Both the position numbers and the translations under genes were made by a program. Positions 1 through 61,941 of a stretch of 64,000 nt of DNA are shown one piece after another (positions within the stretch are counted from its first letter, which is position 1; every line of letters starts with the position of its first letter). The notes beneath the pieces were generated by a model that was given only the letters and a program-made list of their open reading frames with translations, had not been told where the DNA came from and searched no databases. This DNA comes from Malus domestica (taxonomy: Eukaryota; Streptophyta; Magnoliopsida; Rosales; Rosaceae): the NCBI RefSeq assembly GCF_042453785.1, contig NC_091675.1, forward strand, positions 49,982,501 to 50,046,500, read 5' to 3'.

Positions 1-2454
1 GTAAAAGCCGGTTGGGAATTGGAGGACTGGCCAAATGATGTCGATGAAGGCTGCTCTGCAATCTCACTAAAGAGCAACTGCATTTGCAAGCTTCCGGAAG
101 AATTGGTATGTCCAAGACTCCGAATTTTACTTATAGATGATAATCTTAAACTAAAGAAGATCTCAGAAGCTTTTTTCCGAAGTCTGAATGCGTTAAGGGT
201 CTTAGACCTTAGCAGCACTTGTATTTCGTCACTGCCCTCTTCGCTCAATCTCCTAACCAACCTTCAAACATTGCACCTAGATTCATGTTGGTCATTAAAG
301 GATATCTCCATACTCAGAGAACTAACCAAACTTGAGATCCTTAGTCTGAAAGACTCACGTTTTGAGGAATTGCCAAAGGAAATAGGAAACTTGGCCAGTC
401 TGAGGTTGTTGGATTTTGCTGGGAATACAATGATTCAGAGAGTTCCATCCAATGTGATATCTAGGCTGTCTCGGTTAGAGGAACTATACATGCAAGGTAG
501 TTTTGGAAATTTTGGGAGTAGAATTGAAGGAGCAGGAGAAGAAACTAATGTTGGATTCGATGAGCTAACTTGCTTGTCGTACTTAAGTAATTTGACTGTT
601 CAGATTCATTCTGCAGAATGCATTCCCGAAAATGTTGGCTTCCATCCAAATTGGGAAAAATTTTACATACTTATCAAGAGTCAAACAATACCCCTGCATA
701 AGGTTGAGTATTATGATTTTAGTACTTCATATGGTTCAAGAATCTTGGCTCTTGATACCACAATCAATAACTTGCCTAGTTGGTTTAACAGTGCAGTGAC
801 CGAAAGGGCAAAGAAAATAGTCTACAAAGAATGCAGGGGCTTGATTAACATTATCGAGGAATATGCCATTGAGAGACTACATGAATTGATGTCTCTTCAT
901 GTCGAAAGTTGCCATCAGATGCGTAGTTTGATGAACTACACGGCCACAAATTTGGTTCCGAATAAGCTCGTGTTCAAGAACTTGGAAGAGTTGTGTGTGA
1001 GTAACATGAATGAGTTAAAAGAGTTATGTGTTGGCGACTTACCAGATGGATCTCTAGGCAATCTGACGCTATTGGAAGTGAAAAAGTGTCACGCCTTTGC
1101 GAATGCACTTCTCCAATCAAATTTGTTAGAGAAACTCGAGAATCTGGAAGTACTTATTGTTGATGGTATGAAAAGTTTGGAATACGTGTTTCAATCCGAT
1201 GGTCTCAAACCGGAGCAAAGTGTCATGGGAAAATGCAGAGAGATGAAGCTGGAGGATCTACCAGCACTGAGAAACATATGGAATGGCCCTGCGCAACACG
1301 CGACATTCCATAATCTTAAAATTTTGACAGTTGCATGGTGTATGAAACTGAAGAACATCTTCACAGCGGATATGTCTCGGTGTCTTTCACAACTGGAAGA
1401 GCTGTGGCTTTCCGAGTGCGATTGCTTGGAGACAATTATCGGACCAAGCGAGGGAACATTGAACAGCAAGATCATTTTGCCGCAACTAAACTACTTATCG
1501 TTGCAGCGTCTTCCACGGTTCAAGAGCTTTTATAGCGGTGCAAGTACTGATGTCGAGTGCCCTTCAATGGAGCATTTGTATGTACACTACTGCCCGGAAT
1601 ATTTAATCTCTACGTCGGACTTCAACAGCCGGAAGGAAGTCCAAGTAAATGCAGACCAGCAAGTGCTCTTTGGCCCCAGAAAAATGTACGTACGTTTTTC
1701 TTCTTGTTTAGATTATGTACGTAAATTATTAAGCTGTAACTAATGGTTAATTAAACCACATGCAGAAAGGCTTCGTACTCGATGACCAGAGAGACTCCTA
1801 CATTGATTGACGACGGCTATGCGTGGAAGAATTGCGGACAAGATGAGATCCCTGGTTCTGATCACCCAAGGTATAATACCACTTTTTTACACAATTTTTG
1901 CACACATTTTTGTAAGGCCCATTCTGTGATGTATTTAGCAATCCAAACCGTCTATCTTTAAAACCATCACTCACATTCTTGCAAAAAGTTGGACGAATCC
2001 AAACTATTAAGATATTTATTCGTAGTGAAGAAAATGGACAAATAGTAAATACAGTTCTACAAAGAAACCCTAAACCTTTAATCAAACGGTTATATAGTTC
2101 CAGAGTTGGGTGATTTCTAGTTGACAAGATCTTTAAGGGAAGGCCTAAAAGATAGATAGTTTAGATCGTTGAAACACATTATAAAGTTGGCTCTACAAAA
2201 ATTTGCGTAAAAAATTGTATAAAAAAAGTGGTATCACGCGTCCGTCCTGTATATAAGCTTTCTTTGATCGACTATTAACCACAAGAATTCTGACTTCATG
2301 TTATATCCACAGGATCTACTATCGATGCATTCACAAGTTCAATAACGACTGCCAAGCAACCAAAGAAGTGCAAAAATTTCGAGATGATCCGCCAATGTAC
2401 GAGACTACATATTTTGGCATTCATACATGCAGGGCACATCCTAATTACATTTGA
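1..2454 (+). CDS. CNL-type NLR resistance protein (3' part) fused to a C-terminal WRKY domain
   Basis: The 5' end lies left of the window; the frame is open from base 1, so no start codon is seen. Proposed exons are <1-1685, 1766-1870 and 2313-2454. The first encodes about 560 residues of leucine-rich repeats of the At4g27190/RPS2-like CNL class: early LRRs such as LRVLDLSSTCISSLPSSL and EELPKEIGNLASLRLLDF, then the long irregular C-terminal LRRs typical of that class. CC and NB-ARC domains would lie outside the window. Without splicing the frame would stop at 1741-1743. A GT at 1686 and an AG at 1765 remove 80 bp and join in phase to a WRKY domain ending at a TGA at 2452-2454. Known of the family: intracellular immune receptors that sense pathogen effectors; extra domains often act as effector baits. 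The fusion is inferred from splice signals and phase. The alternative is an LRR gene beside an orphan WRKY fragment. Confidence 0.72.
1766..2454 (+). other. Degenerate group III WRKY domain encoded by two exons of the NLR gene
   Basis: Exon 1766-1870 reads TPTLIDDGYAWKNCGQDEI and on to DHPR. Exon 2313-2454 continues IYYRCIHKFNNDCQATKEV to GIHTCRAHPNYI and stop. The zinc ligands fit the group III pattern C-X7-C-X23-H-X-C exactly. The intron splits the arginine codon of the PR motif, which is the conserved intron position in WRKY genes. The WRKYGQK heptapeptide has become WKNCGQD, so the tyrosine and lysines that contact W-box DNA are lost while the fold-defining residues stay. Inference: an integrated decoy rather than an active transcription factor. 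Confidence 0.8.
1877..2233. repeat. MITE filling the WRKY intron
   Basis: The ends are long imperfect inverted repeats: taccacttttttacacaat at the left and its near complement, ending in gtggta, at the right. The match extends inward to aaatttttgtag/ctacaaaaattt. The element makes up about 357 of the 442 intron bases and begins about six bases from the splice donor. No clear target duplication was found. Confidence 0.55.
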
Positions 2455-3288
2455 CCATCTTTGTAGGTTAATTGCTCTTACAACCCCTGAGTTTTTTCAT
2501 ATTTTCATAAAACTTCAAGAGATCTCAAAAATTACATTGACAACAGTAACAGGAATCGCTTTCGCAAAATCCTTTGCGTGCACAAAATAAGTAAATAAAT
2601 TACAAAATTTCCTCCTCGTCCCCATATCTTTTATTTCATCAAATTTGGTCAACGTAGTTTTCAATCTGTTCCAATTTGAGGACATCTGGTAGCATCATTT
2701 GGTGCTGAAATTAAACAAAGAGAACAGATGTTCTTGAACTCGAACAGATCCGTAACTACAATAACCAAATTCGATGATGAAATCAAGCGTCTGCGCAACC
2801 GAACTACGGATTATAACTACTACCTATTCATAATTCCAAATGAAATGAACAAAGGAAAAAAAGATAATAGCTGTACCAAATCTTATTACTTCGCAACTAA
2901 TCAAACTCTGCAAGCTGCATTCCCAATCTCTACCGCCTGCTTAAATACACGATCCCTTCGACGGGAACTGTACCAAAAGTTACAGAATCTAACTAGCCTG
3001 GAATATTATGGTCCACGGGCTCGTGGCATTCCTAGAAACTTCACGTTGAGGTTGAGCCAAACAATGGCACAACTTCTACCCGTAAAATGAGTTCTAAAGC
3101 TGATAATTTACAACAGCCGATGTCTTCAAGCATTTGCTCGTCCTCAATGCAGAGAAAGACGTGATGCCACCATTCAACACCCCACCTCCAAAAGAAAACT
3201 TCCTCACTTGGTCTTTTGATTGAAGGGAGGGAGAGATTACCAGATAGAGATGGGCTAGAGGAGAAGCTGCATTTGCTAGCAACAGCCA
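2455..3288. other. Intergenic, between convergent genes
   Basis: This holds the 3' flank of the NLR-WRKY gene and, on the minus strand, the probable 3' UTR of the esterase gene. Short open frames here have no recognisable domains and no splice context. I see no other structure. Confidence 0.5.
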
Positions 3289-6200
3289 TTACCGAAATAT
3301 GTCTGGAAAAGACCACATGATGAATCTTGCAAAAATGTCGGACTCCAAAAACTCAATATGAGCAGCCCTTCCTATGAAGGTGTTCAAGTTCTTTCCATAA
3401 GAAGAGGTATCAAAGTTGACGTCACAGCGCATGAACACTCGATTCTCAGACTGAGGGGCCCGTATCTGTTCCAAGCAATCACTCAGCATTTCCTGAAACA
3501 CTTTTCCCTTCCTTGAGAAATCCAATGAAGCAGCCTGGCACGTGTCTATTCTAGCGGAATGGTAGGGAACATAACCATCCTGCAAAACACGATCCATAAT
3601 ATTAATTTATGGGTATGAGAGAAAAATACAACAAATTATTAAAGATTTTTTTTTTCTGTTACAAGAAAAAGTCACTCTCCATTCGAATAACATAGATATC
3701 ATGAGAATAATTTTGCCTCAAAATACCATATTTAGAATATGAAGAGCAAAGAAGTTTCATGAGATTTTAGCTCTTCCACTTTGGCGCAAGTAGATTGCTG
3801 CATAATTCTAAGACATCGACATTTGTAAATCTGAAAGGTACACTTCAATACAAGTGTTTCCATGACACATCAAAATAGATAAAGAGAAGAAAGTGGTATT
3901 AAGAGTTCCTCCCAACCTAACATCAAATCTTTCAGTATGTGGAGCAAAAGCAAAGAAATAATGCATGTTGTCCTAGTAATTTAGACCCTGCTCATTATTG
4001 AAGCACGAATAGTTCACTAATGCAAAATCTAGCATAATGAGCATGTTTTGGAACCAGAGAACAAACTAAAAAAAGGGTTTTAAAGGTCCTAGTTCACCAA
4101 GGTCCATAGAGTACTGCTCACATGAATGACGACTGAATGAGCATATTGAGTTTTTAATTAGTTCAGCAGTAGGATAAAAGCCTATAGGTTGAGGATGGAT
4201 GACAAACAAGTCATTTCTTTTTGGTCAGGATAATAAACAAGTCATATGGTAAATTGATTCTCAAGAGATCATAGGTGCTCAAAAACATAGTAGCTCACAT
4301 AAGAATTTATGGTCCGTGGATAGACCAATTGCACTTCAACTTGATGGAAAACAGCAGAGAGAAGCAACCAAAACAATGTGTTTCAATTAAGTAAACTAGG
4401 TTATGAAAGCCCCAGGGAAGAGATCACGATACCTGTGGTGAAGATAACAGGACTATGTGCTTGAAATTCTCAAGTGTCTTCTTCTGCAAAAAGAATTACT
4501 TTAGAACATCAGCAAATAAACACATCACATTTGTCACCATTTTTTCTTAAACCAAGTTATAATTATTAAAAAAATAAAAAAAGTCATGTTTGCCTCGACT
4601 TTGAATTACAGAAAAATGTATTGAGTATGCAATACTATTATTAAACTTTAAAAGGAAACAAAAGGCCATTATTAATATCATGATTTGATTACACTTCCCA
4701 AGATGATGAGTAGCTATTAGGCAAACACCTGATGGCTGAGCTAAATGCATTAAATACAGGAATTCAGTACCTTACACAGCTTGTAAAAGAACGTATTTTG
4801 AAGATCTGGATCATCGGTGAAGGTAAGCTGATGAATGCACTGCGTGTTCTTGAGCTTCTTCAAGAGCCACAGCCCGGAGTTGAATAAAGAGTTCGAACTG
4901 TAAAGATATCCCAAGTGTGGGCCCGATATAGAAAGATATATGTACAGGTATCTTAGGAATGGCTCCATAATGCTATCTGCAAAAATGATGCCAATAATAT
5001 CTTACACCAACTGCATATAATGGGAAAACATGACGTCAGTAGTTTGTTACCTGTTAGTGCTGTTCTTATGATAACATTCCCAATAGAATGTCCCACAAAG
5101 CTAAGCTTAATATCAGCTATGTTTCCAGATCTCGATACTTTATCCATTTTCTTCTTGAGGAAAGAAACTACTTCCTGAGCCAACCTTTGTCCCATTTCTC
5201 TGAAGTCACCAGACGTTTTGTCTTCATTTGCCTGTGACATTAGAAACTCTACCTTGGGATCTATCAATAGCCATTGGTTTCGAATAAGCCGTAAATCCAG
5301 GTGATGACCCTGTAGAGTGAGAACTGTAATAAGCATCCACTTATCTATCTTTAATAAAAATGCAGTACAAAGTACAAATAAATAGACTTATGTAGCTGTT
5401 CCATCAACTAAACAGGTATGAAGTCGTAAACTTGCAGCATAAAACATGAATGACCAACAAATGAATATTTTAACCCATAAATCACTAACGTTTAACTCCC
5501 TTTAAAAACCAAATATACACCGACTAACACAACCAAAAACTTTTATGATCACTATGTATACAAAGTATTTTGAACCTCCATAAACATAAGTTATTACAAA
5601 TAGCTAGCAAGTTTTAACCTAAATTCAAATTGATACATTGACTAGTTCAAAACTGTTAATATTTCTACTTAAAAAAACAACTAAAAAAGTCTGTCGCACA
5701 AAGAAAATACTGGGGAGCAAGAAAAGAACAGAGAAGACGATGAAATTAAAAAAAAAAAAAAAAAAAGAGGAAGCTATAAGAGAACAAAACTAGCCTGAAA
5801 CCCATGCACAAAGACGACAAGTTTTAAAACACGGCCTTTCTTTGGTGAGATATAGTCAAATTTCTTGTTTTTGGAGTCAGAGCCAGATCCACTGAGTAAG
5901 CCAGCAGAGTTAATCACGTCCAAGTTTCTCAAGTACGAATTATCACTAGTTGTACGCCAAGGCGCATTCAACACACGCTCCACAATAACAATAGGAATGC
6001 TTGATGTATCTCCAAATATATGCATGTCTTGAATTGACCGATTGTTAATCTGCATTGAAAAATCTGATTTAGAGAAAAAATCCAAGAGGACAGACAATAC
6101 GTCACTTCATCTGAAAGCAACGACTCACCTTCATTTGCGCAATACTTCGCCGATGAAGCTCAGCACGGGTAGCAGCAGTCTGGGCAGGCTGTACAGAACA

Positions 6201-9200
6201 AAAGTTAGATCTCTAAAAGATGCATTGGAATCTAAATTTGGCTCATAACTGAACTCTGCACAAGGAAGATTGAACACCCCCTTGACATTTCTCAGAACAG
6301 GTTGGACAATTTTCATTGGGAACTGTTATTAGCACTCCAAAAATCTCATTCTACACTCCTCACAAGTGAATTTTTCTTTCTATTTATAGAAACTTCGGAG
6401 TGCAAAATGAGATTTTTAGAGTGCTAATAACAATTCCCTTTTTATTTCATCACTAACAAATCATGTGGAATACTTACATCATCGGTTAATTTCCATGTCG
6501 TTAAAACCCTTTTATGGCCGCCATTGTGGGAAGACTCTTCACCCCCACTACTATTTAGAAAATGATGAGGCATCTCAACCTTAGAGTAAACCATCCATAT
6601 TGACCATTCAGCTTTTCTATCCTTAGCCCATGTGTCATGCAAGTATTCCAGTATCTTTGTTTTGTTAAACCTGCAATGAATAAATATCACCATACAAACA
6701 AGTACAGAAGATCTGGAAATTAGATCAAGAGGAGCTAGTCTTCCCTTTATTTATTGTGGGTACGAATAAGAGATTAATCAAAGGCTATATTGACAATAAC
6801 ACCTTATTGGTATTGCATGTCCGTCAATTAAATAAAGGGGCATCCACTCTAGACCCTCATACGGGGGCCCTTTCTCTTGGAGAGTATGCCTGTTTCGGTA
6901 TACATAGATGATATATATATATATATATGGATCCCCGAAATCCTCACAAAGAGAATCCGGATTCACAACTCTCACAACTTGCCCTTGGTGTTGAAGGCAC
7001 ACCGTGTACACTCCACATTCTAATTACAGACTCCTTATTTGCTATGCTGTTATTTGCCCGATGATTGATGTTGTTGTTCATTATGCCATTTTTGTCTTTT
7101 TTTTTGTTGGGGGGGGGGGGGGGTGTTGAAGCTGGGGTGAGACTGATTTGGGAGGTGTGGTGTGGTCAGGCGGGATAGATCAGGGGAAGTGGGATGGGGG
7201 GTTCTGGGCTAGTGTTCCAGGTGGATTGAAAAGACTAAATACCCTTACTTTGACTAAAGACAACAAACGTTAACCACAACGGCCATATTTACAAAATGGA
7301 AACCACATTACTAAGTTGACAATTATAGCAAATCACAGGTCCATTTATAAATTTTGGACAGACACACACGTGTATCATGTACATATGAAAATCTATACAA
7401 AAATATTCAAGTGTACAAGTCTATGATTGGGACCGTCATCCAGTACTTAAAAAACAATAAATAAAAAAACCCATAAAACCATAATAACATTGTCAAAGTA
7501 AGCGAACCTGTGGAACTTCAAAAAAGTGTTCCATAAATATAAAACTTGATCGCCCAACGAATAAAAAGAACTCTGAAGGGCATCCCTCGATAAGGGGCGT
7601 ACCAATTCACCACTTCCAAACTTTGATGTGCCATTTACTTTCTGTCAAAAACAGATAAAGTAAGGAAAAATATGAACCTTAAAGCGTAGAAATTCCAAAA
7701 AAAAAAAATAGGATAAGAACATTGTGCTGTATGAAATAAATAAAGGACCTGAAGACCATTTTGTGGCTTGCCTTGTCCTGAAACTTGGTCATCTGCTGCA
7801 ACCAAATTTTCTTGCAGGAAATCAAACTTTGTGTCATCAATTTTAGATATAAAATCAGTCAAATCAATTGCTTGGTCAATAGCCTTGCTAAGTTTCTGGA
7901 GCTCTTCAAGCAGTATGTCACGAGCATTTAACAATGATTTAGCACGAATAATGTCATTCACAACTGCAGCAGCCGCCTGTGTTGATGCCTAGTCAGTAAC
8001 AAATTTTAAACTGTAAGTATATAATCAAACAGCCTCTGAAGAAAAGAGCAAATAAAACGTAAAAAAACAGATTGAGAATACTCAAAACCTTTCATATCCC
8101 ATGTTAAGTACATATGTGCTGCAATATGTCCAGATACTAGTACATTTTTTTTTTTTAAATTTAAGTACTTTGTTTCAATCACCCATCTATATTTTATATT
8201 GTGCTCAGCACCATTTATTTTCAATGTACTTATCCACGTAACTTTAAAACCTTGAAAACACTACTAAATCTTGCATATCACAGAAGGTTTTTGTTATTCA
8301 TTCACCCTTTTCCTAAATGCATGGCTTGTTTAGTACCTATCTGGTGAGAACAGCAGGCCAAGAACTTTTACTCAACCTTGAACAAAGTTTAGATTTTACT
8401 TTTCTTCATTGATATCACTTTGCAGACAATAGATGTGTACTTTTCTACTTTCCAAGACAGGTTATTTTGTAAATCCATATCATAACCATTTTGTAATTAC
8501 GTATTAGCGCTTCTCAGATCATGCAATCCCAAAAAAGTAGATATAGCCTGTACATTAGTCAAGTCCGCTCAGTTAATTTGTTTAAGTCTTTTTGCATCAA
8601 ACAAAAAGTCATTAATTGACATTTATATTATATGATGTGGATCTTAATATAATGTGAAGGACTTCCACTGAATGGTATCCTGATCCAGAACGAAGCTCTT
8701 TCAAATGAATGTTTATGACAATTTATATAATAAGCAAACGCTAAGGATATCTGTAAGAAAAAAGCTCCAAGGATATTGGATAAATTATGGACAGTGAAAG
8801 TAATTCAAATTGTTGTAACTAGGGAAATGACTCATAAAGTTCTCTAACCTGAAAACATAAAATTAATGTCAATTCCTAAAAACTGCAATGTGTATACCAA
8901 AGCATATCCATAGGTCCCACAACCATGCAGAATTGCGTGTGCATACATGTGCCCAATCGTACAATGTTTGTGTTCTGGTATTGTGTGAAGGCCCTTGGGA
9001 AGTGCATGTGTATGCACATGTTGTTGATATTGTCAATACGAAGTACGTGAAAGAGAGAAGGAAAGATGACAAACAACCCATAAGAACACACTGTTAAAAG
9101 AGATAAAAATTCAAGAGTGAATGCTGCCAAGCTTCCCTAGGGCCAGAAAAAGGATCTAGTAGAATTTAATGGGTAACAACGTACTCGATTTAACCCAGAA

Positions 9201-25823: not shown

Positions 25824-28800
25824 TACCATCATAGAAAACGTATAATGGAATATAGCTTTCATTATATATTTCTCCAACTAGGTTTACACCTTATATACAA
25901 GAATACAGTGAACAAGATCCTAAACTAAAGCCTAGACACAAGGATCGTCAAGGACTAAACAAGGAAGTAAATAACAACAATATCAATTAATAATATTGAC
26001 TAATCTGTGGAGATACTTTCCTTAACACTCCCCCTCAAGTTGGAGTGTATGTTAATGACACCCAACTTGCTAAGTAATCCTTCAAACTGTGTTGAACTCA
26101 ATGGCTTGGTGAATATGTCAGCCGGTTGATCACTTGTCCTCACGTACGCCGTACGTATCATCCCTTCCTGAATCTTCTCTCGTACTAGGTGACAATCAAT
26201 CTCTATATGCTTCGTTCGCTCATGGAAAACGGGATTGGAGGCAATGTGTAATGCTGCTTGATTGTCACAAAACAACTTAGCAGGTTGTGAGTCACTCACT
26301 TTCAGATCTTTCAAAATATTCTTCAACCATATGATTTCACAACATGTGGTGGCCATGGAACGGTATTCAGCCTCTGCACTAGAACGAGATATATTGTTTC
26401 TTAGTCTTCCAGGAAATGGGCGCTTGACCAAGCAAAATACAGTAGCCAGTTATCGACCTTCGAGTATCTCTACATCTAGCCCAATCAGCATCACAAAACG
26501 CTTGTAATTCCAGTGATCCTGTGGAAGGAAGAAAGATTCCTTGTCCTGGTGCTTGTTTGATGTACTTGAGAACTTTATGTGCTGCCTCAAGATGTGGGTG
26601 TCGTGGTTTCTCCATGAACTGACTTAGTATGTGGACGGCATATGCTAAATCAGGTCTCGTTATGGTCAAGTAAATTAACCTGCCCACAAGTCGTCTATAT
26701 GACGAAGGATCTTTCAACTCCTTTCCTTCCATTTGTGTGAGAGACAAATTTTGATCCATAGGAAACCTGGAAGGCTTAACTCCTAGAAAACCAGCATCAT
26801 CCAATATCTCTAGTGCGTATTTGCGCTGGCATAGAGTGATTCCACGTTTTGAGCGTGCAACTTCTATTCCCAAAAAATACTTGAGTTGTCCCAAGTCTTT
26901 CAGCTTGAACCGTTGAGAGAGGAACTGCTTAGTCTCTTCAATTTCATGCAGATGATTCCCCGCCAGTATCACATCGTCAACATAGACTAATAAAGCAACA
27001 AAGTTACCATGATGACTTCGGACGAATAGTGAATAATCAGACCGTGATTGATGGAACCCAGCAGCCATGAGGGCATTGGATAGCTTAATGAACCACTGCC
27101 TGGAAGCTTGCTTTAAGCCATATAGGGATTTATTCAACTTACATACTCGATTCTCCCCCTTTCGTCCGAAACCAGGAGGTAAATTCATGTAAACATCTTC
27201 GTCAAGATCACCATGTAAGAACGCATTGTTCACGTCTAGTTGATGGAGATGCCACCCTTGCACAGCCGCAACACTAAGAAGCACGCGAACTGTGGTTAAT
27301 TTAGCAACTGGAGCAAAGGTTTCTTGGTAATCAACACCTTCAATTTGACTGTAGCCCTTGGCAACGAGGCGCGCCTTGTACCGTTCGATTGTGCCATCAG
27401 GTTTGAGCTTAATCTTGTAAACCCATTTACAACCAATGGGACGTTTATGCAACGGCAAAGGCACAAGTGTCCATGTATGGTTGGCTTGAAGAGCAGCGAT
27501 TTCACGCTGCATGGCATCACGCCAGTGTGGATCTCGGACAGCTTGGGAAAAGCTGGTGGGTTCTTTGAGGAGGGTGAGTGTGGCAGTGTAAGCTTTATGG
27601 TGAGGTGAAAGACGATCATATGTTAAGTAATGGGAGAGAGGATGAGAAGTACCTGACGATGACTGGACGACGTTCAGAGAAGACATGGGATCAGGCCGAG
27701 ACGGGAGAGGAACCTCGATATGAAAATCCTGCAAAAAAGTGGAAGGTTTAGTAGGACGAGTTCCACGTCGGGGTGGAGGGGTGGGCGAAGCATTTGGAAT
27801 GGGAGAAGGTAAAGGATCTGGAGATGTAGGGTCAGAGAGGAGGTTAGTGGTGGACGGTGCAGGGTTGGTAGGAGAGTCAGGTGAAGATAAGGCTTGTGGT
27901 GTAGGGTCAGATGAGGATAATGCATGTGATGGAGGGTCAGAGGGTGCGGAAGGCATGGGAGGTGTGTCAGGAAAAGAAGCCATGTCAAAGTGGAAAAGTG
28001 GGTGGGATGTGGTGGGTGAGTTGGCAAGGGCATGGGAGTTGTCAGGGGCATCGGAAGTGTCTAAGGGGAACTGATCTTCAAAGAAAATGACATCACGGGA
28101 GACAAAAACTTTATTAAGTTGAAGATCAAGTAAACGATAGCCTTTTTGCCCATAGGGATATCCCAGAAATACACAGCGACGGGCACGGGGATCAAATTTG
28201 GAAGGTTTAAGTGGATGAGTGGAAGCAAAACACAAACAACCAAATACGCGTAAGTGTGAATAGTGGGGAATTTTGTTAAACAGTTTTTCATAAGGTGTCT
28301 TGCCTTTAAGAACGGGTGTGGGGGTGCGATTGATAAGGTAGGCTGCAGCAAGGATGGCGTCCCCCCAAAAACGTTGTGGCATTTTAGCTTGAAAAAGGAG
28401 GGCTCGGGCAACATTTAATAAGTGACGATGCTTACGTTCAGCAACACCATTTTGTTGTGGTGTGTTGACGCAACTCGTTTGATGGACGATGCCGTTCTGA
28501 GCATAAAAATTGTCAAGACGAAATTCGGGCCCATTATCACTTCTAATCATTTTGACCTTGGTGGTGAATTGTGTTTCAACCAAATGAATAAATTGCACAA
28601 GGAGATCCCGTGTATCAGATTTATGTTTCATCAAGTAAATCCATGTGCTTCGAGTGTAGTCATCAACAATTGTGAGAAAGTATCGTGCACCAGAAAGAGA
28701 AGGAACGTGATACCCCCCCCCCCCCCAAATGTCAATATGAATCAGTTCAAAACAAGATTTAGTGGATATAGAACTTAATGAAAATGGTGCTCTGGTTTGT

Positions 28801-30704
28801 TTGGCTAATGGACAAATAAAGCACTTATTAGAATCACAAGGTTTATTATTCAAGAAGGGAAATAACATGGAAACAGTTTGGGATGGATGGCCTAGACGTT
28901 GATGCCAAAGACAAGGGTTGGAAGCTTGAATGACATTGCATGTTCTTTTCTGTGGTGGATCGAGGTAGTATAGCCCCTCTCGCTTAAATCCCATCCCAAT
29001 CATCTTCCCCGAGCGTAGGTCCTGTATAACACAAATTTGTCTGAGAAAAATGGTAATATAGAAAGAATCATGGGCGAGCTTACTAATGGATATTACATTT
29101 AACGTGAAAAATGGTACACACAAAACATGATCAAGCACCAATGTGGGTGAGAAAACGACTTGTCCAATGTGGGTGACCGTGGCAAGAGAACCAGTGGGTA
29201 GTTCAACAGTATGGTTAGAAACAGGCCTCGATGATGTGAGAGAATTAGGGCTGCAAACGATGTGGTCCGTTGCACCACTATCCAAGATCCAAACAGTTGT
29301 AATACCATTGTGCATGCATGAAAAAGCTTTACCTGAGAGTTTTTCATTGTTTGATGAATTACCAACGTGATTCGCAAAGGATGACTTGTTCTTGTTTAAC
29401 ATCGCAAGTATCTGTTTGCAATCCTCCTGAGAGAAGGGAAAATTGGGCATCCCGTCCTTCTTGTCATGCACTGCAACATGATTACCCTTAGCAGAAGATG
29501 GGCGATTTTGTTCAGGTTCAGCAGCTGCTTTGCGCTTGCGACAATATTCGAATGAATGACCTTTCCATCCACAAAAAGTGCACTTGAGGTGTGCTCGGCA
29601 GTGCTTGGTAATATGGTTCGTCTTGTTACATTTCCCGCAACGAAGATTTCCGTCTTCTTGTTCATTTTCTCGGCCACCATTTTTCACGGCAAAGACTGCC
29701 GCTTCAGGTTGAGAAAGATGCTTTCCAGTTGAGACTTCTGCCTGCCTCTCATGACGAAGAACAAGGGAATAGGCCTTGTTCACTGTTGGTAAAGGCTCAA
29801 GGAGGAGAGTATTACTTCGAACGGTGGAATATGAATCGTTTAAACCCATGAGAAACTTCATGGTTTTCTGGGTTTCAACATAAGAAATAATCTCCTTTTT
29901 CGTGTCGCAACTACATGCAGGGATAGAACACAGTACATCACGTTCGTCCCAAAGCCCTTTTAATTTAGTGAAGTACGAACTCACCGTCATGTTGCCTTGT
30001 ACACAGCCATGGATCTCATTTTCTATGTGAAACAATTGAACAATGTTCACATGGGAAAACCTTTCTTGCAAATCAAGCCACATCTGCCTTGCATCTTTAC
30101 AGTGGATGACACTACTTGAGATTTCTTTGGACATAGATCCTAGGAGTCACGTCTTAACCAGATTATTACACCGATTCCACTGCTGCAGTTCTTCATGTTT
30201 GTCTTCAGTAGGCTTCTCGACTGTTCCATCGACAAGCCCTAGTTTATTTTTGACTGTTAAAGCCATGGTCATGGATTGAACCCATGTACTGTAATTGTCT
30301 TCCACCAGTGGCTGAGGCACAAGCACTGCACCAGGTTGGTCCGAATGATGGAGATAAAGTGGGTGATTAGGATTCTCCCACTTCGAATGCGAGGTCATGC
30401 CTGCGGAGGTTGACTTCTTTTCTCTATCACCCATGGCTGCGTTTTGCTAGGGTTTGTTTGTGTGTTTGCTTTTTGTTTGCCCAGATATCAATCACTCTGG
30501 TACCATCATAGAAAACGTATAATGGAATATAGCTTTCATTATATATTTCTCCAACTAGGTTTACACCTTATATACAAGAATACAGTGAACAAGATCCTAA
30601 ACTAAAGCCTAGACACAAGGATCGTCAAGGACTAAACAAGGAAGTAAATAACAACAATATCAATTAATAATATTGACTAATCTGTGGAGATACTTTCCTT
30701 AACA
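25824..30704 (-). mobile_element. Ty1/copia LTR retrotransposon, near-complete, young
   Basis: The 204-bp direct LTRs at 25824-26027 and 30501-30704 look identical by eye, so the insertion or last homogenisation is recent. On the minus strand the order is 5' LTR, primer site TGGTACCAGAGTG (tRNA-iMet type), gag with a CCHC zinc knuckle, protease (WILDSGATDH), pre-integrase and integrase core (IDIWGG...VDDYTRSTW), a proline/serine-rich linker, reverse transcriptase (YVDDVILAG), RNase H (copia order), a purine tract and the 3' LTR. Most of gag-pol is one open frame of about 1250 codons. A few interruptions remain (about two), so the copy is broken but nearly whole. No matching 5-bp target duplication is seen. 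Confidence 0.93.
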
Positions 30705-41879: not shown

Positions 41880-44800
41880 TCAAGAAGATTCGGTCTCACT
41901 CATCACAAATGCTTGAATAAGGCTCTGCGCAGCGTGCGTTTGTTCAGGTGTTCCGGATATTATAATAACAGTTTCAACTGCTCCAGGCTTGGGCTCGGTA
42001 ATGGTAACTTTTGCATCAGAAATCTGGAACAGTGTTGGTCATATTAGAAGTGTAAATGCTATGCAACAAAGCATGTTCTGACTAAATGGAACTGTAGAGT
42101 CATAAACAATTAAATATATGTATCTATATATACGCTTCCAAATTCCAATAAAATTGTAAGTTGAACTTTATCATGCAATGAAAACCAAGCACACAGTAAG
42201 CAAAGGACAGGCCAATCGAATTTGAGGTTTTTTTACAAAAATAATAACGATAATTGGCATATTGCAAACAGCTCAATTTATTTCCAAGCACAAGGCAAGG
42301 CAAGGCCTGTCGCATATAACACCCAGCATAGTGAGATCCACTTAATGTAGCGTACAAATTTAAACTTGATTATGCAAACAATTGAAGAATATTGAAATCC
42401 TAGACTACCCTCTTCTGTCCTCTCTCGCGGCCCTCTTTCTTTCTTAATTTCACCTCCCTTCTTTCTCCATATTTCTATCTATCTATGCCACTCAATTGGT
42501 TTTAGTTCAACTGGTGTATCCTGACAATTAATTCGATTCTATACATAAGTAGACTATGTATGAAGTGACGAACATATATTCTCTAATTAACATTGTGCAA
42601 ATGCAATAGAAAAAATTGGTGACCTAATTTTGTGGAATTAGGAGTCATGGGGAAGGGCGATTATGAACAAGCAAACGTCAATCAGGTGGGAGCAGTTTTT
42701 CTGAGCAGATGTACACTACCCCATATGCTTACAGGGTTCTCAGTAATTAATTAAATTTTATAACTAAAAGGGAAGCAAGGTCATGTATTTCATTCCATTT
42801 CCAAATATCCTCACAGCCCTCTATTTAATAATATGTTACAAATCCATGTTTTCTTCCTTTATGCCAACATGGTCAGATCAAGAATGTACCTGACGTATTT
42901 GCTTCAAGCATTCACCATCTTCTCCATTTATAATAGGAACAAGGGAACTAGGCAAACAACTTCAACAGTGGTGCTGGTAACTATTGCTGGTTGGCTTCCT
43001 CCAAACCCTGGAATTCTTCTTTGAGGAGCACCTTGGAAAGTTTGGCAAGCCTGGTGGACCACCACCTTCATGAAGTCCCTGTGGACAAGTTTGGGATACA
43101 AACGTAAATCAGCAACTTACGTACAATTAAACTTGCCCGTTTCAAACTAACATACAGTGAAGATCAATTTCCACACATATAATTATCTCAAGATGAAACA
43201 AGCATATGATGAAAAAGTTTGAAGCACCTGACTGAAAAAATCAACAAAAGTTGAAACAGATGTATGTGGAGAAATACAGAAACCATCTAAAGCAGAACTA
43301 TAAGTAAAAGTGTCTATAACAACTAAATACCTGAGGGCCCCAAGGTCTTCTCTCGGATAAATGTGGGCGGGCACCTAACCTATGAATATTGTGCACAAAG
43401 GGAGCACGATCGTCGTGAGGATGAAAACTACCATGAGGGGGCAGGCCACCAACAGCATCAAACTTGTGCAACGATGGGCCTAAATTAGAATGCATTCCTG
43501 GAGGTGAGAAGTCCCTCCTCAGATATGATTGAAATGGAGGTTGATCCAAAAACGCAGGATTTTGATGATAATGTATAGAAGGAAATGCATCACGAAAAAA
43601 GTGATGCCGCAACCTAGTGGTAATCTGCAGAAGAGCATCTTTAACGGCCTCAAATTCTCCATTTATCTGTAATAAGAGGAACCGTTTAGCAGCAAGCACA
43701 GCTGATTAGAAAAAAAAAGGCCGTGTTTGTTAAATATGATAAAACACGGAACACTTGCATGCAAACAAAGACAGCATTCCTGGACTATTAATATCAACAA
43801 CATGCACAAATCCACATAAAGTTTACAGCAACTAAACCGAGAAGCAAAAGCAGCCACTTCACAAAATGATACCCAAGATAGAGATATGGCCAACCTTTTC
43901 AGACTCAAAGAACCACGCATGCACTAAGGAAAACACACCTGAACAACTTCTTCATCAACTGAAGCGCCGGCAAACATATTCAATAGCTTTCCCAACTGCA
44001 TCAATGTTCCCCGAAATCTGCAGCATAATTATCAAAATACGATGTCCAAATAGAAATTTATGCATCAGAATCATCAACATATAAACGTAAACCAAATTCT
44101 AGTGCACTGTGCAAATTTCCAATGCTTAAAGATTACATACAATGCGTAAATATTACATCCGCACTATTGCATTGCATGAGCATTTTGACAACCCTGCTGA
44201 TTAAATAAAACCTGAGTGACGAACACGTTAGAGTAGGCACGACTCACTTATTCATATCTTGACTGAAATAAAATAAGGTATTCTGCAGCAATGGTTGATA
44301 GTATTACATAATATATAGTGATATTTGAAGTTACCTGAACTAGTTCATCGCAAACTGCCGCACATGACGGAAGTTTATCTCTGGGAAGGATCCGGATTTG
44401 TGCCCCACTTTCAGATGACATTTGTTTGATAACACTACCACCCTTTCCCAAGAGGCAACCCACTTGGGATGAAAGGACTAGTAATCTGCAAACAAATGTC
44501 AAAGACACATTACTTTCTTCATCCGCTCCATCGCTCTCTGTTTCCCCTTCAACCATTCTCTCAAAAACAAGTTTCAGAGCCCTCAGCAAAGATGGAGATA
44601 GATTATCAGATTTCGAATCTTCAAGATCAGATTTTGAATCTTCAATAGGAACCGATTCCCGAGTTTCATCCCTTTCTCTTGGCTCCTTAGTACCATCATG
44701 CTTTTCATCCACATTTGCCTCTTCAACACCATCCTCCTTTCTATGCTCGCTACCAACATCATTCTCTCCATCAGAACCCACGACAATAACTCTTTCATCG

Positions 44801-45045
44801 CATCCCGGGACAGCTTCCTCAATTCTGACCTTTACAAGAGTTTCTTGAAAAATCTGTGATATGACAGAGCCACCTTCCCCAGTGACATTATCAACTTTGG
44901 ACGCAGGGCACAGTACCCGGAAAGCAACATTGCCAGGGGAGAGTTCAGAAGCTTGATTTCCAGACTTCTGCAACTTCCCCTTCCCATTAGTCTCCGCAAG
45001 GCTCTCCTCATGTGGTCTCTTCGACGGCGTCAATGGAGCCGACAT
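41880..45045 (-). pseudogene. Decayed multi-KH-domain RNA-binding protein gene (HEN4/At4g18375-like)
   Basis: Recognisable exons, 5' to 3': 44333-45045 (two KH domains), 43939-44017, 43331-43666, 42890-43078, 41880-42023. KH1 is degenerate: its GxxG loop is GEGG, in SKVDNVTGEGG where relatives have GSVIGKGG. KH2 (VGCLLGKGGSVIKQM) looks intact. The second exon goes from ISGNIDAVGKAIEYV straight into a frame-shifted SVDEEVVQ, the end of a later KH domain, so roughly two KH domains appear deleted. It is 79 bases long, out of phase with the next exon (INGEFEAVKDALLQITTRLRHHFFRD). The fourth exon changes frame twice (GLHEGGGPPGLPNF, then QGAPQRRIPGFGG, then SSLVPIINGEDGECLKQIRQ). The last exon (ISDAKVTITEPKPGAVETV...) is well kept. 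Relatives have about five KH domains and act in nuclear pre-mRNA processing. A heavily mis-assembled gene is the alternative. Confidence 0.75.
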
Positions 45046-45524
45046 TTCCACCCAAAATTATAGCAGACCAACAGCACTGCCATTTGCATATAACACAAAA
45101 ACAATAAAACATAAGAAAATCTAATATTCGGATCCTCCGAAAACAGTCTCAAAATGTCTTCCACTGAAACATTAAATCTACACTAACATATCCCGGTTCG
45201 AATCCCCCTCCTCGTAGTTTAGATTAGATTCGACTATCGCTTGGATAAAAATAAACAAAAAAATAATAATCCTTATCCCAGTTGCAAACACTTCTAATCT
45301 TTTACCAGCAATGATGCAAAAGCCAGCAGACGTAACATAACCACTAATATTTTTTGTTTGGCAGCCAGGAAAATGTAGGTACAACGAAAGTTCCCTCATC
45401 TGCCCCAAATTGCAAAACACTAGAGTTCAGCCCCCAAATTGCAAAAAAAAACAAAAATTGTCTTTGGAAAATGAAATGAAGAGACAAGAGAACATGAGAG
45501 ACTGATTGACAAAGGTAGACTCAC

Positions 45525-56648: not shown

Positions 56649-56798
56649 AGCACCGCCATAGTGGGGCGTTCTAGTAATTCACACTCCATATTCCGCCCAA
56701 TAAATCCGTACGCCAACGCAAATTTACCTGATTCTACGAGTTTCTTTGAGTTCTGTGAGGCCGTCGCATTAGCTCGAAAGCTCTACGCAGTAGAATCC

Positions 56799-58492
56799 AT
56801 GGCCTCCAGCGCCGCCCCCACCCCCAAGAAAATTGTCCAATCTGTCACCGTTAGGGTACCTCAGGGGATGCTTTCGCCGTCGTCTTCTTCGGCGAGCTCT
56901 AAAAACTTCTGCAATCGGCCCTCCAATCGGATGCACTACCCCTCCAATTTCAAGCGGAGCGCCGCCCCGGCCCGTGTTATGTTCTTCCAGAACGATTCCT
57001 GGAATGACTTGCCGACCCCGATCGTCGAATTTCTGCGTTCGGGTTTCGCGGAGCGGAAGGCGGTCGTCAGCGTTGAAATCGAGGGGTCAACGGTTTTGTT
57101 TGACTTTGTGCGAATGTTGCAGATTGATTTGGGGGCTGGGAGTCAGAGATCGATCGCTTGGATTGACGTGAACGCCAGGCCCTTCTTCCCTAGGGCGTTT
57201 GTCAGCGAGGATTTGGTGGACGGGTCGGATAGTCCCAAGGTCCAAATCAACAAACGGATCAACGTATCGGGTCGGGTATTGGGCAAGAGGCAGACGGAGG
57301 AACGGCCGATGGATGAGGACGAAGTGACGTCGTCAATAAGGCCGCGGAGTTCGGAGTGGCCGAATGTGAGGTTGGTGGGAGAAGCTGAGAGGGTTTGCAC
57401 TGTTTGCAGCAATTTGTTTCTCGCCGGGATGAAGAAGGTTGATCTCGCGGCTGCTGTGACGGCAGTTCATCAGTGCGTTCGGGACGGGCCGTTGGATAAG
57501 GCTCGATTGGAGGTCTTTCAGAAGCAAATTGAGATCACCACGGCGGCTCGGGGCTCGGCCAATGTCATATACGCCTGGTGCGGAGTGTCGGGCAACGATG
57601 TGAAAGGCATTTTGACACATGGGTTCGGCGCACCCAGCAAGGTTTCTGGGCCGCAGTCGCATGGCGTTGGTCTTCATCTTTCGCATTTATCGGTGCCTTT
57701 TCTAAGGTACTTTCATTTGGTGTTTCATTTCCTTTTTTTGGCGGTTTAATTTAAGGGCTTTGAGTTTTTTGAATTGTTGATAATTTGATGTTGTAATGGC
57801 TGAACTCTACAGTGCTGGGCAGTCGGAGCAGGATGATAATGGCGAAAAATATGCTATTTTGTGCCGGGTTATACTAGGCAATGTTGAAAAAATTGAGGCA
57901 GGTTCTAAGCAATGTTACCCTTCTGGTGTGGAATTCGACAACGGTGCAGATGATCCTAAGAATCCTAAGTGGTATGTCATATGGTCTACCAACATGAATA
58001 GACACGTGCTTCCGGAGTGTGTTGTGAGCTACAAATCGAATTATGTGCCAGGTATGTTTCTTCTATGCTTTTTTGTTACATCTGTTTTATTTATGTTATA
58101 TTTTGTTTCATTGATGATATAACTGATTTTGTTTTGTGGATTTTCAGCTCAATCGGTGCGAAGAGCATACCCTGTTGATATGTTAATTTCGAAGATTAAG
58201 AGCTATCTTCCTCCTTCTAAAGTTCAGGAACTTTCCTCTTTGGTATGCGAGTTGAAGGTGAGCAATCTTCCTTTCACTGGTTCAGAATTGTGGTTCATAG
58301 TCTCTCTGTGCATTATAAAATATATGAACAATTAAATGTCATCTAAGAATCAAATGTTTTCGGTATTTCTCAATGTTGCAGGGTGGAAAGCTGGCCAGGG
58401 ATGATTTTGTCAAACAGTGTAGATCAGTTACCGGAGAGCAATTGATGGCATCTGCTCTTAACGACTTGCGTCTCCAGAAGCAAGGTTCTTAG
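56799..58492 (+). CDS. Inactive PARP-like SRO protein (RCD1 type: WWE, PARP-like, RST)
   Basis: Exons 56799-57706, 57813-58051, 58148-58257 and 58382-58492 are in phase and give 455 residues. The frame is open upstream to 56661 but that codon is GTG; ATGGCC at 56799 is the first ATG in frame. The WWE domain spans about residues 59-131 (RVMFFQNDSWNDLP...SIAWIDVNARPFFP), aligning with RCD1. The PARP-like domain is about 225-385 (ARLEVFQKQIEITTAARGSANVIYAW, HGVGLHLS, YAILCRVILGNVEKI). The C-terminal RST domain is about 390-455 (PVDMLISKIKSYLPPSKVQEL). The catalytic histidine position of active PARPs is not seen, as in plant SROs. Known role: nuclear hubs binding stress transcription factors through RST and controlling oxidative, salt and developmental responses. 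It is shorter than RCD1/SRO1 (about 590); which SRO it corresponds to is uncertain. Confidence 0.88.
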
Positions 58493-61068: not shown

Positions 61069-61428
61069 CTACTCAGCAGAGGAGGGCTCTTCCGGAGAAG
61101 ATGCGGAAGCGGAAGCAGCTTCGTCGGCACTAGAGAGCAAGGTCCACTCTGCAGGGAGAGGAGGCAGGGAAGCGTACACAGTGGGCTTGCGTTTAACGTC
61201 CCACGGCTGCGTTTTACGTGGCCGAGTCTTCCGGTGGTGCGCAGTCGCCTTCTTCTGTGGCCTTGACGAGCACTCTATCACCAACCCACCACCACCACCA
61301 CCATTACCGGTGGTTGAGCCGTGCCATGGGGCTGAATTGGTCACTCCAAACGACGTCATCGCAGGTGGGTTCTTCACGGCCACACCCACCGGCACCAAAT
61401 GAGACCCCAACACAGCTGACACTGACAT
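61069..61428 (-). CDS. PSRP6: Plastid-specific ribosomal protein 6 (50S subunit, cL38)
   Basis: A single exon of 119 residues. The N-terminus MSVSAVLGSHLVPVGVAV is a Ser/Val-rich plastid transit peptide. A glycine run leads to the mature signature VIECSSRPQKKATAHHRK, TRPRKTQPWDVKRKPTVYA and LPPLPAEWTLL, which I recognise from Arabidopsis PSRP6 (At5g17870). The acidic Ser/Glu/Ala tail is also typical. Known role: a small structural protein of the chloroplast large ribosomal subunit, nuclear encoded and imported. I chose ATG 61428 because family members begin MSVSA; an in-frame ATG at 61500 would add 24 residues (MGSSFLNVIPRG...). Confidence 0.92.
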   Translation of the reverse strand: MSVSAVLGSHLVPVGVAVKNPPAMTSFGVTNSAPWHGSTTGNGGGGGGLVIECSSRPQKKATAHHRKTRPRKTQPWDVKRKPTVYASLPPLPAEWTLLSSADEAASASASSPEEPSSAE

Positions 61429-61941
61429 CTTCGCTTGCTCTTGCTTGGCTCCTCCTCTGTTGGTTCCTCTGGGGATAACGTTGAGGAATGAGGATCCCAT
61501 ATTGTGAAGTCCATGTACCCCTTATTATTAGAATAGACTTTCTCCTCTTCCCTCCCTTCTTATTCCCTCCCTTCTTATTTAAACAATTACGATTGAGTTA
61601 CGTCAACGTTTTATTTTAAATTTTTTATATAAAAAAAAAGACAAAAAAAAAAAGAAAGTGTGATAAGAGAAGACTATAAAAGAATGAGAGAGAATCATAT
61701 TCCATTATTAGATAAGTGGATCCCACTCCTAAAGCATATCATCATACAACACAATATTATAGAGTTTTGACATAATAACTATATTGATGTACGACTTTCA
61801 TATTCAAAGACGACATTGATAAAATTTTTAGTAGTGCTATATTTACTATTCATTTCTACTATTATATTATATGTATCATCTTCTTAATAAAAGTAGAATC
61901 CGTCAATGTGTGTGAGTTTTTTCTCTATTAGAAAGATAATA
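61429..61941. other. PSRP6 upstream region
   Basis: Pyrimidine/purine-rich sequence close to the start, A tracts at about 61630-61660, then AT-rich sequence up to the fold-back element. A TATA-like taaataag on the minus strand near 61577 is a weak promoter candidate. Confidence 0.35.

What the first reader, a model, noticed from the sequence alone, without database searches (positions are those of the whole stretch)
1..2454. NLR receptor with an integrated C-terminal WRKY domain
The LRR exon of a CNL gene would stop soon after 1685 if unspliced. A canonical 80-bp intron joins it in phase to a full group III WRKY domain split by the conserved WRKY intron. NLR-WRKY fusions are known as a class (for example RRS1, a TIR-type receptor), but a CNL-WRKY of this layout may be undescribed in this lineage. 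It would be a candidate effector-sensing receptor.
Basis: partly seen in the sequence, partly recalled or inferred. Interest (0 to 1): 0.85.

Follow-up and report, generated by a model that had tools for sequence, protein, structure and literature searches.

The report
Plant immune receptor with WRKY tail
A disease-resistance receptor gene in what looks like an apple-tribe plant appears to end in the DNA-binding part of an immune gene-switch protein whose DNA-reading motif is broken, which fits a bait for pathogens and is a new example of a known kind of receptor.

Summary
Window 1-2454 is the 3' part of an NB-ARC-LRR gene joined by canonical, phase-2 introns to a group III WRKY domain with the conserved PR intron. 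The genome upstream supplies an intact start, NB-ARC and LRR without TIR, so CNL; the predicted protein is 1,136 aa. (1) The WRKYGQK heptapeptide is degenerate (WKNCGQD), while all four zinc ligands and 19 of 21 other near-invariant residues are kept, so W-box binding is probably lost. (2) Three of three C11 paralogues have a phase-2 GT at the same place but no detectable WRKY within about 9 kb. Four of four WRKY genes examined in the C12/C4 group have the same phase-2 acceptor. This points to exon capture. (3) A MITE-like repeat fills most of intron 2. The WRKY branch has omega 0.35; neutrality is rejected (p=0.011). Best reading: an integrated-decoy CNL, a new member of the NLR-WRKY class described in RRS1, wheat YrU1, grasses, cacao and strawberry; Malus domestica is listed as having NLR-WRKY genes. 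No transcript evidence or other plant genome was available.

The parts
1..1685 (+). 3' part of the large first exon of a CNL gene: LRR region of RPS2-like type. The exon begins outside the window with ATG at C15:49981022 (L011:1022), 1479 bases before window base 1, and carries the N-terminal region, NB-ARC, winged helix and LRR.
1686..1765 (+). Intron 1, 80 bp, GT-AG, phase 2. A phase-2 GT lies at the same place in the C11 paralogues; the acceptor and first residues of the next exon match the C12/C4 WRKY genes.
1741..1743 (+). Stop codon reached if intron 1 is retained: possible NLR product without WRKY.
1766..1870 (+). Exon 2: N-terminal half of the WRKY domain with its donor-like leader KASYSMTRETPTLIDDG.
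1824..1844 (+). Heptapeptide WKNCGQD in place of WRKYGQK (4 of 7 residues changed).
1871..2312 (+). Intron 2 at the conserved PR position, 442 bp, GT-AG, phase 2.
1873..2238 (+). MITE-like element (approximate ends) filling most of intron 2: terminal inverted repeats about 77% identical; dispersed repeat, 40 long matches listed from 40 scored of 616 candidates, the window copy included. It starts within a few bases of the splice donor.
2313..2454 (+). Exon 3: zinc half of the WRKY domain (C 2326-2328, C 2350-2352, H 2422-2424, C 2428-2430), then a short tail and the stop TGA at 2452-2454.

Best explanation
[quoted passage not shown] The product is CC-NB-ARC-LRR-WRKY, 1,136 residues. Most likely the WRKY domain is an integrated decoy: effectors that bind WRKY transcription factors also bind this domain, and this disturbs the receptor's resting state and triggers CC-dependent immune signalling. 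The heptapeptide is broken while the fold and zinc site are kept, so the domain probably no longer binds W-box DNA and does not act as a transcription factor. Any effector would have to be sensed in another way than through the heptapeptide Tyr and second Lys used in RRS1. Shown here: gene structure in DNA, domain content, and loss of the heptapeptide. Supported: constraint on the WRKY branch, and exon capture. Inferred: the CC type, splicing in vivo, loss of DNA binding, decoy function and its effector.
For: Open joined frame, canonical splice sites and Pfam matches. ATG, NB-ARC at 4e-42, winged helix and LRR in one 1,073-aa open frame with readable P-loop, kinase-2, GLPI and MHD. Three of three C11 paralogues have a phase-2 GT at the same place (its use as a splice site is not shown), and four of four WRKY genes examined (three on C12, one on C4) start exon 2 at a phase-2 AG acceptor with matching residues. 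Only 22 bases lie between the unspliced NLR stop and the WRKY exon, so there is no room for the exon 1 that a free WRKY gene needs. Omega on the fused WRKY branch is 0.35; omega=1 is rejected, LRT 6.43, p=0.011. Heptapeptide kept at 3 of 7 near-invariant sites against 19 of 21 elsewhere, Fisher p=0.021. In RRS1 the heptapeptide Tyr1218 and Lys1221 contact AvrRps4, and Lys1221 is the PopP2 acetylation site (PMC8685902 passages); here these positions are Cys and Asp.
Against: No transcript data. The WRKY branch may include time before the fusion, so its constraint need not all be post-fusion. The codon test uses 79 codons and one unrooted tree. In the decayed C8 copy the LRR end and WRKY part are missing, so the age of the fusion is open. 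Codon-position mismatches between C15 and C8 (22/235, 17/230, 27/233) show no clear constraint on the LRR since that split. The donor clade is not resolved by protein tree, and amino acid identity does not separate the cluster (48-53%) from other group III genes (46-53%). No partner NLR was found in the window or in 20 kb upstream, unlike RRS1/RPS4. A WRKY domain without the known effector-contact residues may have lost decoy function too.
Confidence: 0.67

Rival explanations
1. Ordinary CNL with a decaying WRKY remnant: the exons are spliced in but have no function, and the heptapeptide loss is the first sign of decay.
For: Four of seven heptapeptide residues lost; long terminal branch; MITE-like repeat in the intron; the related C8 copy is a pseudogene.
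Against: Zinc ligands, splice sites and frame are intact and omega is 0.35 with neutrality rejected at p=0.011.
Confidence: 0.2
2. The WRKY exons form a separate gene or a transcribed fragment next to a CNL that ends in intron 1 (stop at 1743).
For: The NLR frame does have a stop at 1741-1743, and no WRKY was found behind the three C11 paralogues.
Against: No space for a promoter or the WRKY exon 1; exon 2 begins at a splice acceptor shared with the WRKY genes of C12/C4; phases match.
Confidence: 0.06
3. The receptor uses the WRKY domain as a working DNA-binding output module that changes transcription on activation.
For: WRKY domains are DNA-binding in general; RRS1 WRKY binds W-box DNA (PMC8685902 passages).
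Against: WKNCGQD has no tyrosine and neither lysine of the motif, the kinds of residue that Sarris 2016 calls essential for W-box recognition (passages); the second Lys is Asp.
Confidence: 0.05

Closest known systems
Arabidopsis RRS1 (RW1; TIR-NB-ARC-LRR-WRKY)
   Same: C-terminal integrated WRKY after the LRR; second-best PDB match of the domain, E 3.9e-13.
   Different: RRS1 is TIR-type, has an intact heptapeptide and works with a linked partner RPS4; here no TIR match, WKNCGQD, and no NLR partner found in the window or 20 kb upstream.
Wheat YrU1 (ANK-CC-NBS-LRR-WRKY)
   Same: CC-type NLR with C-terminal WRKY (PMC7070047, abstract and passages).
   Different: YrU1 has an N-terminal ankyrin domain and a WRKY heptad region described as consistent with RRS1; it is a grass gene.
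[quoted passage not shown]
   Same: NB-ARC-LRR, no TIR listed, with C-terminal group III WRKY (PMC4350883, section 12 part 1).
   Different: Two WRKY domains in all but one of the proteins described; monocots; independent origin is likely.
Strawberry RW2 / FvWRKY61 and relatives
   Same: Rosaceae if the window is apple-tribe; group III WRKY from a tandem cluster fused to an NLR (PMC9229891 passages).
   Different: TIR-type NLR; not shown to share the event.
[quoted passage not shown]
   Same: Eudicot, group III WRKY; Sarris places the cacao fusions with WRKY54/70 (passages).
   Different: WRKY is N-terminal.
Wheat NLR-AP2a (Bailey 2018)
   Same: Part of an intron plus a downstream exon of the donor gene fused into an NLR intron (PMC5819176 passages).
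   Different: AP2 donor, recent event, grass MIC1 clade.

Membership tests
CC-NB-ARC-LRR (CNL) receptor | NB-ARC domain with P-loop, kinase-2, GLPL and MHD | tested here: met
   Pfam NB-ARC 4e-42, residues 161-397; motifs GVYGMGGVGKTT, IILDDIW, GLPIA, MHD read by eye (motif names recalled).
CC-NB-ARC-LRR (CNL) receptor | CC and not TIR N-terminus | tested here: inconclusive
   No TIR match at E up to 0.01 in the 1,073-aa frame; no Pfam coiled-coil model matched either. CC type inferred from the RPS2-like LRR match.
CC-NB-ARC-LRR (CNL) receptor | C-terminal LRR | tested here: met
   LRR_RPS2 6.2e-39 and other LRR models.
Group III WRKY domain | C-x7-C-x23-H-x-C zinc motif | tested here: met
   Read in the joined protein; all four ligands kept.
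Group III WRKY domain | PR intron | tested here: met
   Intron 1871-2312 splits the Arg codon of HPR; an intron lies at the same place in four of four C12/C4 genes examined.
Group III WRKY domain | WRKYGQK heptapeptide | tested here: not met
   WKNCGQD; of 15 other group III genes compared, 14 have WRKYGQK and one WRKYGHK.
NLR with integrated WRKY | One transcript joining NLR and WRKY | not testable with these tools
   No RNA data; sequence-level splice evidence only.
Integrated decoy | Binds or is modified by an effector that targets WRKY proteins | not testable with these tools
   Needs protein experiments.
RRS1-like paired sensor | Adjacent partner NLR | tested here: not met
   tblastn of the full protein (E up to 0.01) against the window and L009, L010 (20 kb upstream) found only this gene. 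A distant TIR-type partner could escape a CNL query.

The most novel reading that the evidence does not exclude
A Rosaceae CNL has kept, under purifying selection, a WRKY fold from which the DNA-reading and RRS1-type effector-contact residues were removed. It would be a true decoy that cannot act as a transcription factor and that senses effectors through a surface other than the heptapeptide, or through a remodelled, partly acidic one. It would be a capture from a tandem group III WRKY family independent of the TIR-type strawberry captures.
Probability: 0.3. Interest if true: 0.65.

Novelty: new member of a known kind. Interest (0 to 1): 0.45.

Why it matters
NLR-WRKY fusions are natural records of which host proteins effectors attack. 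A eudicot CNL case with a broken heptapeptide but a conserved fold makes one question testable: does an integrated WRKY need its DNA-binding motif to sense effectors, or is the fold enough? The phase-matched junction also shows a simple route, intron-to-intron exon joining, by which receptors can gain domains. If the apple-tribe origin is right, it is a candidate resistance receptor in fruit crops.

Tried and rejected
Dating the fusion with the duplicated C8 region: the C8 copy is syntenic downstream, but the NLR remnant stops near window 1543 and then becomes unrelated, so presence or absence of WRKY before the duplication cannot be told.

Naming the donor clade by tree: the fused domain has a long branch. 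Held together with the C12/C4 cluster the tree is not worse (p-AU 0.539), but grouping it with C1/C7, the other group III genes or RRS1 is not rejected either (0.337, 0.306, 0.308). Amino acid identity does not separate them (48-53% to nine cluster genes, 46-53% to six others). The donor claim rests on nucleotide identity (66-70% against 55-61%) and the shared exon 2 start. It is moderate.

Constraint on the LRR since the C8 split: codon-position counts not clearly biased.

A second topology turned out to be the same unrooted tree as the first, so it is no independent check.

PDB search with the LRR part returned mostly generic LRR proteins and was not informative about the receptor class.

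Other NLR-WRKY fusions in this genome: not surveyed. Comparing start positions of the 150 listed WRKY hits (154 matches; 150 of 276 candidates scored) with the 123 listed NB-ARC hits (123 of 894 candidates scored) gave no pair closer than 18.9 kb. This gene's own NB-ARC is not among the 123, so the comparison is weak.

Novelty in print: in the listings I saw no paper naming this gene; two searches listed 40 of 76 and 15 of 37 papers. Supplementary tables, where the M. domestica NLR-WRKY genes of Sarris 2016 would be, could not be opened. Peach NLR paper PMC10598982 (passages) had no NLR-WRKY fusion in its two mentions of WRKY.

Full report
What is there. The window starts inside a gene. Joining 1-1685, 1766-1870 and 2313-2454 leaves a single open frame with two GT-AG introns and a TGA at 2452-2454. 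Unspliced, the LRR frame stops at 1741-1743. Pfam gives LRR_RPS2 (3.6e-40) and WRKY (6.2e-19) in the joined protein. The best PDB relatives of the WRKY part are OsWRKY45 (6.9e-20) and RRS1 (3.9e-13).

The rest of the gene. The window is C15:49982501-50046500 of an unnamed 651-Mb genome with 19 contigs; WRKY matches fall on C1 to C17. Seventeen chromosomes would fit the apple tribe (x=17, recalled; an inference). The exon begins at C15:49981022 with MAEIVSG and is open for 1,073 codons before the unspliced stop. Pfam finds NB-ARC (4e-42), a winged helix (2.6e-06) and LRRs, and no TIR. The spliced product has 1,136 residues (137 symbols with the stop). The N-terminal CC is inferred, because no coiled-coil model matched.

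The WRKY domain. It is group III by its C-x7-C-x23-H-x-C ligands and has the PR intron. Its heptapeptide is WKNCGQD. Among 15 other group III genes of this genome (18 loci from the top of a list of 50 matches, three of other groups dropped), 14 have WRKYGQK and one WRKYGHK. Of near-invariant columns, the fused domain keeps 3 of 7 in the heptapeptide and 19 of 21 elsewhere, including all zinc ligands (Fisher p=0.021). In RRS1 the heptapeptide Tyr1218 and Lys1221 contact AvrRps4, and PopP2 acetylates Lys1221 (PMC8685902 passages); here they are Cys and Asp. Sarris 2016 (PMC4759884 passages) reported mutated heptapeptides in several NLR-WRKY genes and raised the decoy reading, so this feature is known in kind.

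Selection. With 11 sequences (10 of the 15 plus the fused one; the near-duplicate C12_26.100 and four more distant genes left out), a codon model gives omega 0.35 on the fused branch and 0.29 elsewhere. Neutrality on that branch is rejected (LRT 6.43, p=0.011), and also without the heptapeptide columns (LRT 6.57, p=0.010). The branch can include time before the fusion, so this is support for function and not proof.

How it arose. The three closest long NLR matches lie on C11 (54-55% identity). All three have a GT in phase 2 at the same place; its use as a splice site is not shown. None has a detectable WRKY in 1.5 kb or in about 9 kb downstream. The WRKY genes nearest in DNA sequence (66-70% for nine genes against 55-61% for six others) form a cluster of seven on C12 with two relatives on C4. 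Amino acid identity does not separate them from the others (48-53% against 46-53%). In four of four examined there, exon 2 starts at a phase-2 AG acceptor with matching residues. So an NLR-like donor site and a WRKY-like acceptor site now bound one 80-bp intron, and the phases match. The same kind of junction was described for wheat NLR-AP2a (PMC5819176 passages). Synonymous distance from the fused domain to the cluster (0.86-1.56) exceeds that between the C12 and C4 genes (0.28-0.60) and the C1-C7 pair (0.18). If those pairs come from the genome duplication, as I assume from recall, the donor lineage split before it. The date of the fusion itself is open.

The duplicated region. C8:27.19 Mb is syntenic for the downstream gene and holds a decayed NLR copy, but lacks the LRR end and WRKY. 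It cannot decide whether the fusion is older than the duplication. C15-C8 mismatches by codon position are 22/235, 17/230 and 27/233, not a clear sign of constraint.

Intron 2. Most of it is a MITE-like element with inverted ends. The genome search scored 40 of 616 candidates and lists 40 long matches, the window copy included; the other 39 are 73-78% identical. It begins within a few bases of the splice donor, which in the four C12/C4 genes examined reads GTACAT and here GTATAA.

Mechanism. Best reading: an integrated decoy in a CNL that signals through its own CC and NB-ARC. Shown: structure, domains, heptapeptide loss. Supported: constraint. Inferred: splicing, loss of W-box binding, effector sensing. 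No NLR partner was found in the window or in 20 kb upstream, so a linked RRS1/RPS4-type pair is not supported, although a more distant or very different partner is not excluded.

What is known. Rinerson 2015 (section 12 part 1 of 2 read) lists eight R protein-WRKY types, including NB-ARC-LRR-WRKY(III) in grasses, TIR-type fusions in strawberry and N-terminal WRKY in cacao. YrU1 is a CNL with WRKY (PMC7070047 abstract and passages). A 2025 survey reports WRKY at relatively high frequency in both TNL and CNL genes (PMC12787737 passages). M. domestica is listed with NLR-WRKY by Sarris 2016; the gene identities are in files I could not open. Hence 'new member of a known kind', with a notable broken heptapeptide.

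Noticed in passing
window 26379-30146 (-): A 1,255-codon open frame of a Ty1/copia-type retrotransposon polyprotein (RVT_2 2.1e-77, integrase core), without a stop inside; possibly a young insertion.
   Followed up: no
window 1873-2238: MITE-like element inside the conserved PR intron, starting within a few bases of the splice donor; 39 other listed copies are 73-78% identical.
   Followed up: partly
window 3000-6100 (-): Gene with a DUF676 putative serine esterase exon (4956-5387) directly downstream of the NLR; this neighbourhood is duplicated on C8 at about 78-94% identity over six pieces.
   Followed up: partly
window 44251-45057 (-): KH-domain protein exon (KH_1 8.4e-21).
   Followed up: no
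window 56649-57746 (+): WWE-domain protein (5.1e-26), resembling RCD1/SRO proteins (recalled).
   Followed up: no
window 61072-61521 (-): DUF5323 protein of unknown function (7.9e-38).
   Followed up: no
L040 (C8:27188001-27198000) 5482-6356: Decayed NLR copy of the window NLR: three fragments at 58, 77 and 80% protein identity, 82-91% in DNA pieces, with indels, stops and loss of both ends.
   Followed up: partly
L013-L015 and L041-L043 (C11:1.60-1.71 Mb): Three clustered, closely related CNL-like genes with long open frames (1,084-1,111 aa; dS 0.11-0.13, dN/dS 0.45-0.59).
   Followed up: partly
L010 171-1776 (+) and 5040-5972 (-): Upstream neighbours of the NLR: a tubulin gene and an FGGY-type carbohydrate kinase gene.
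   Followed up: no
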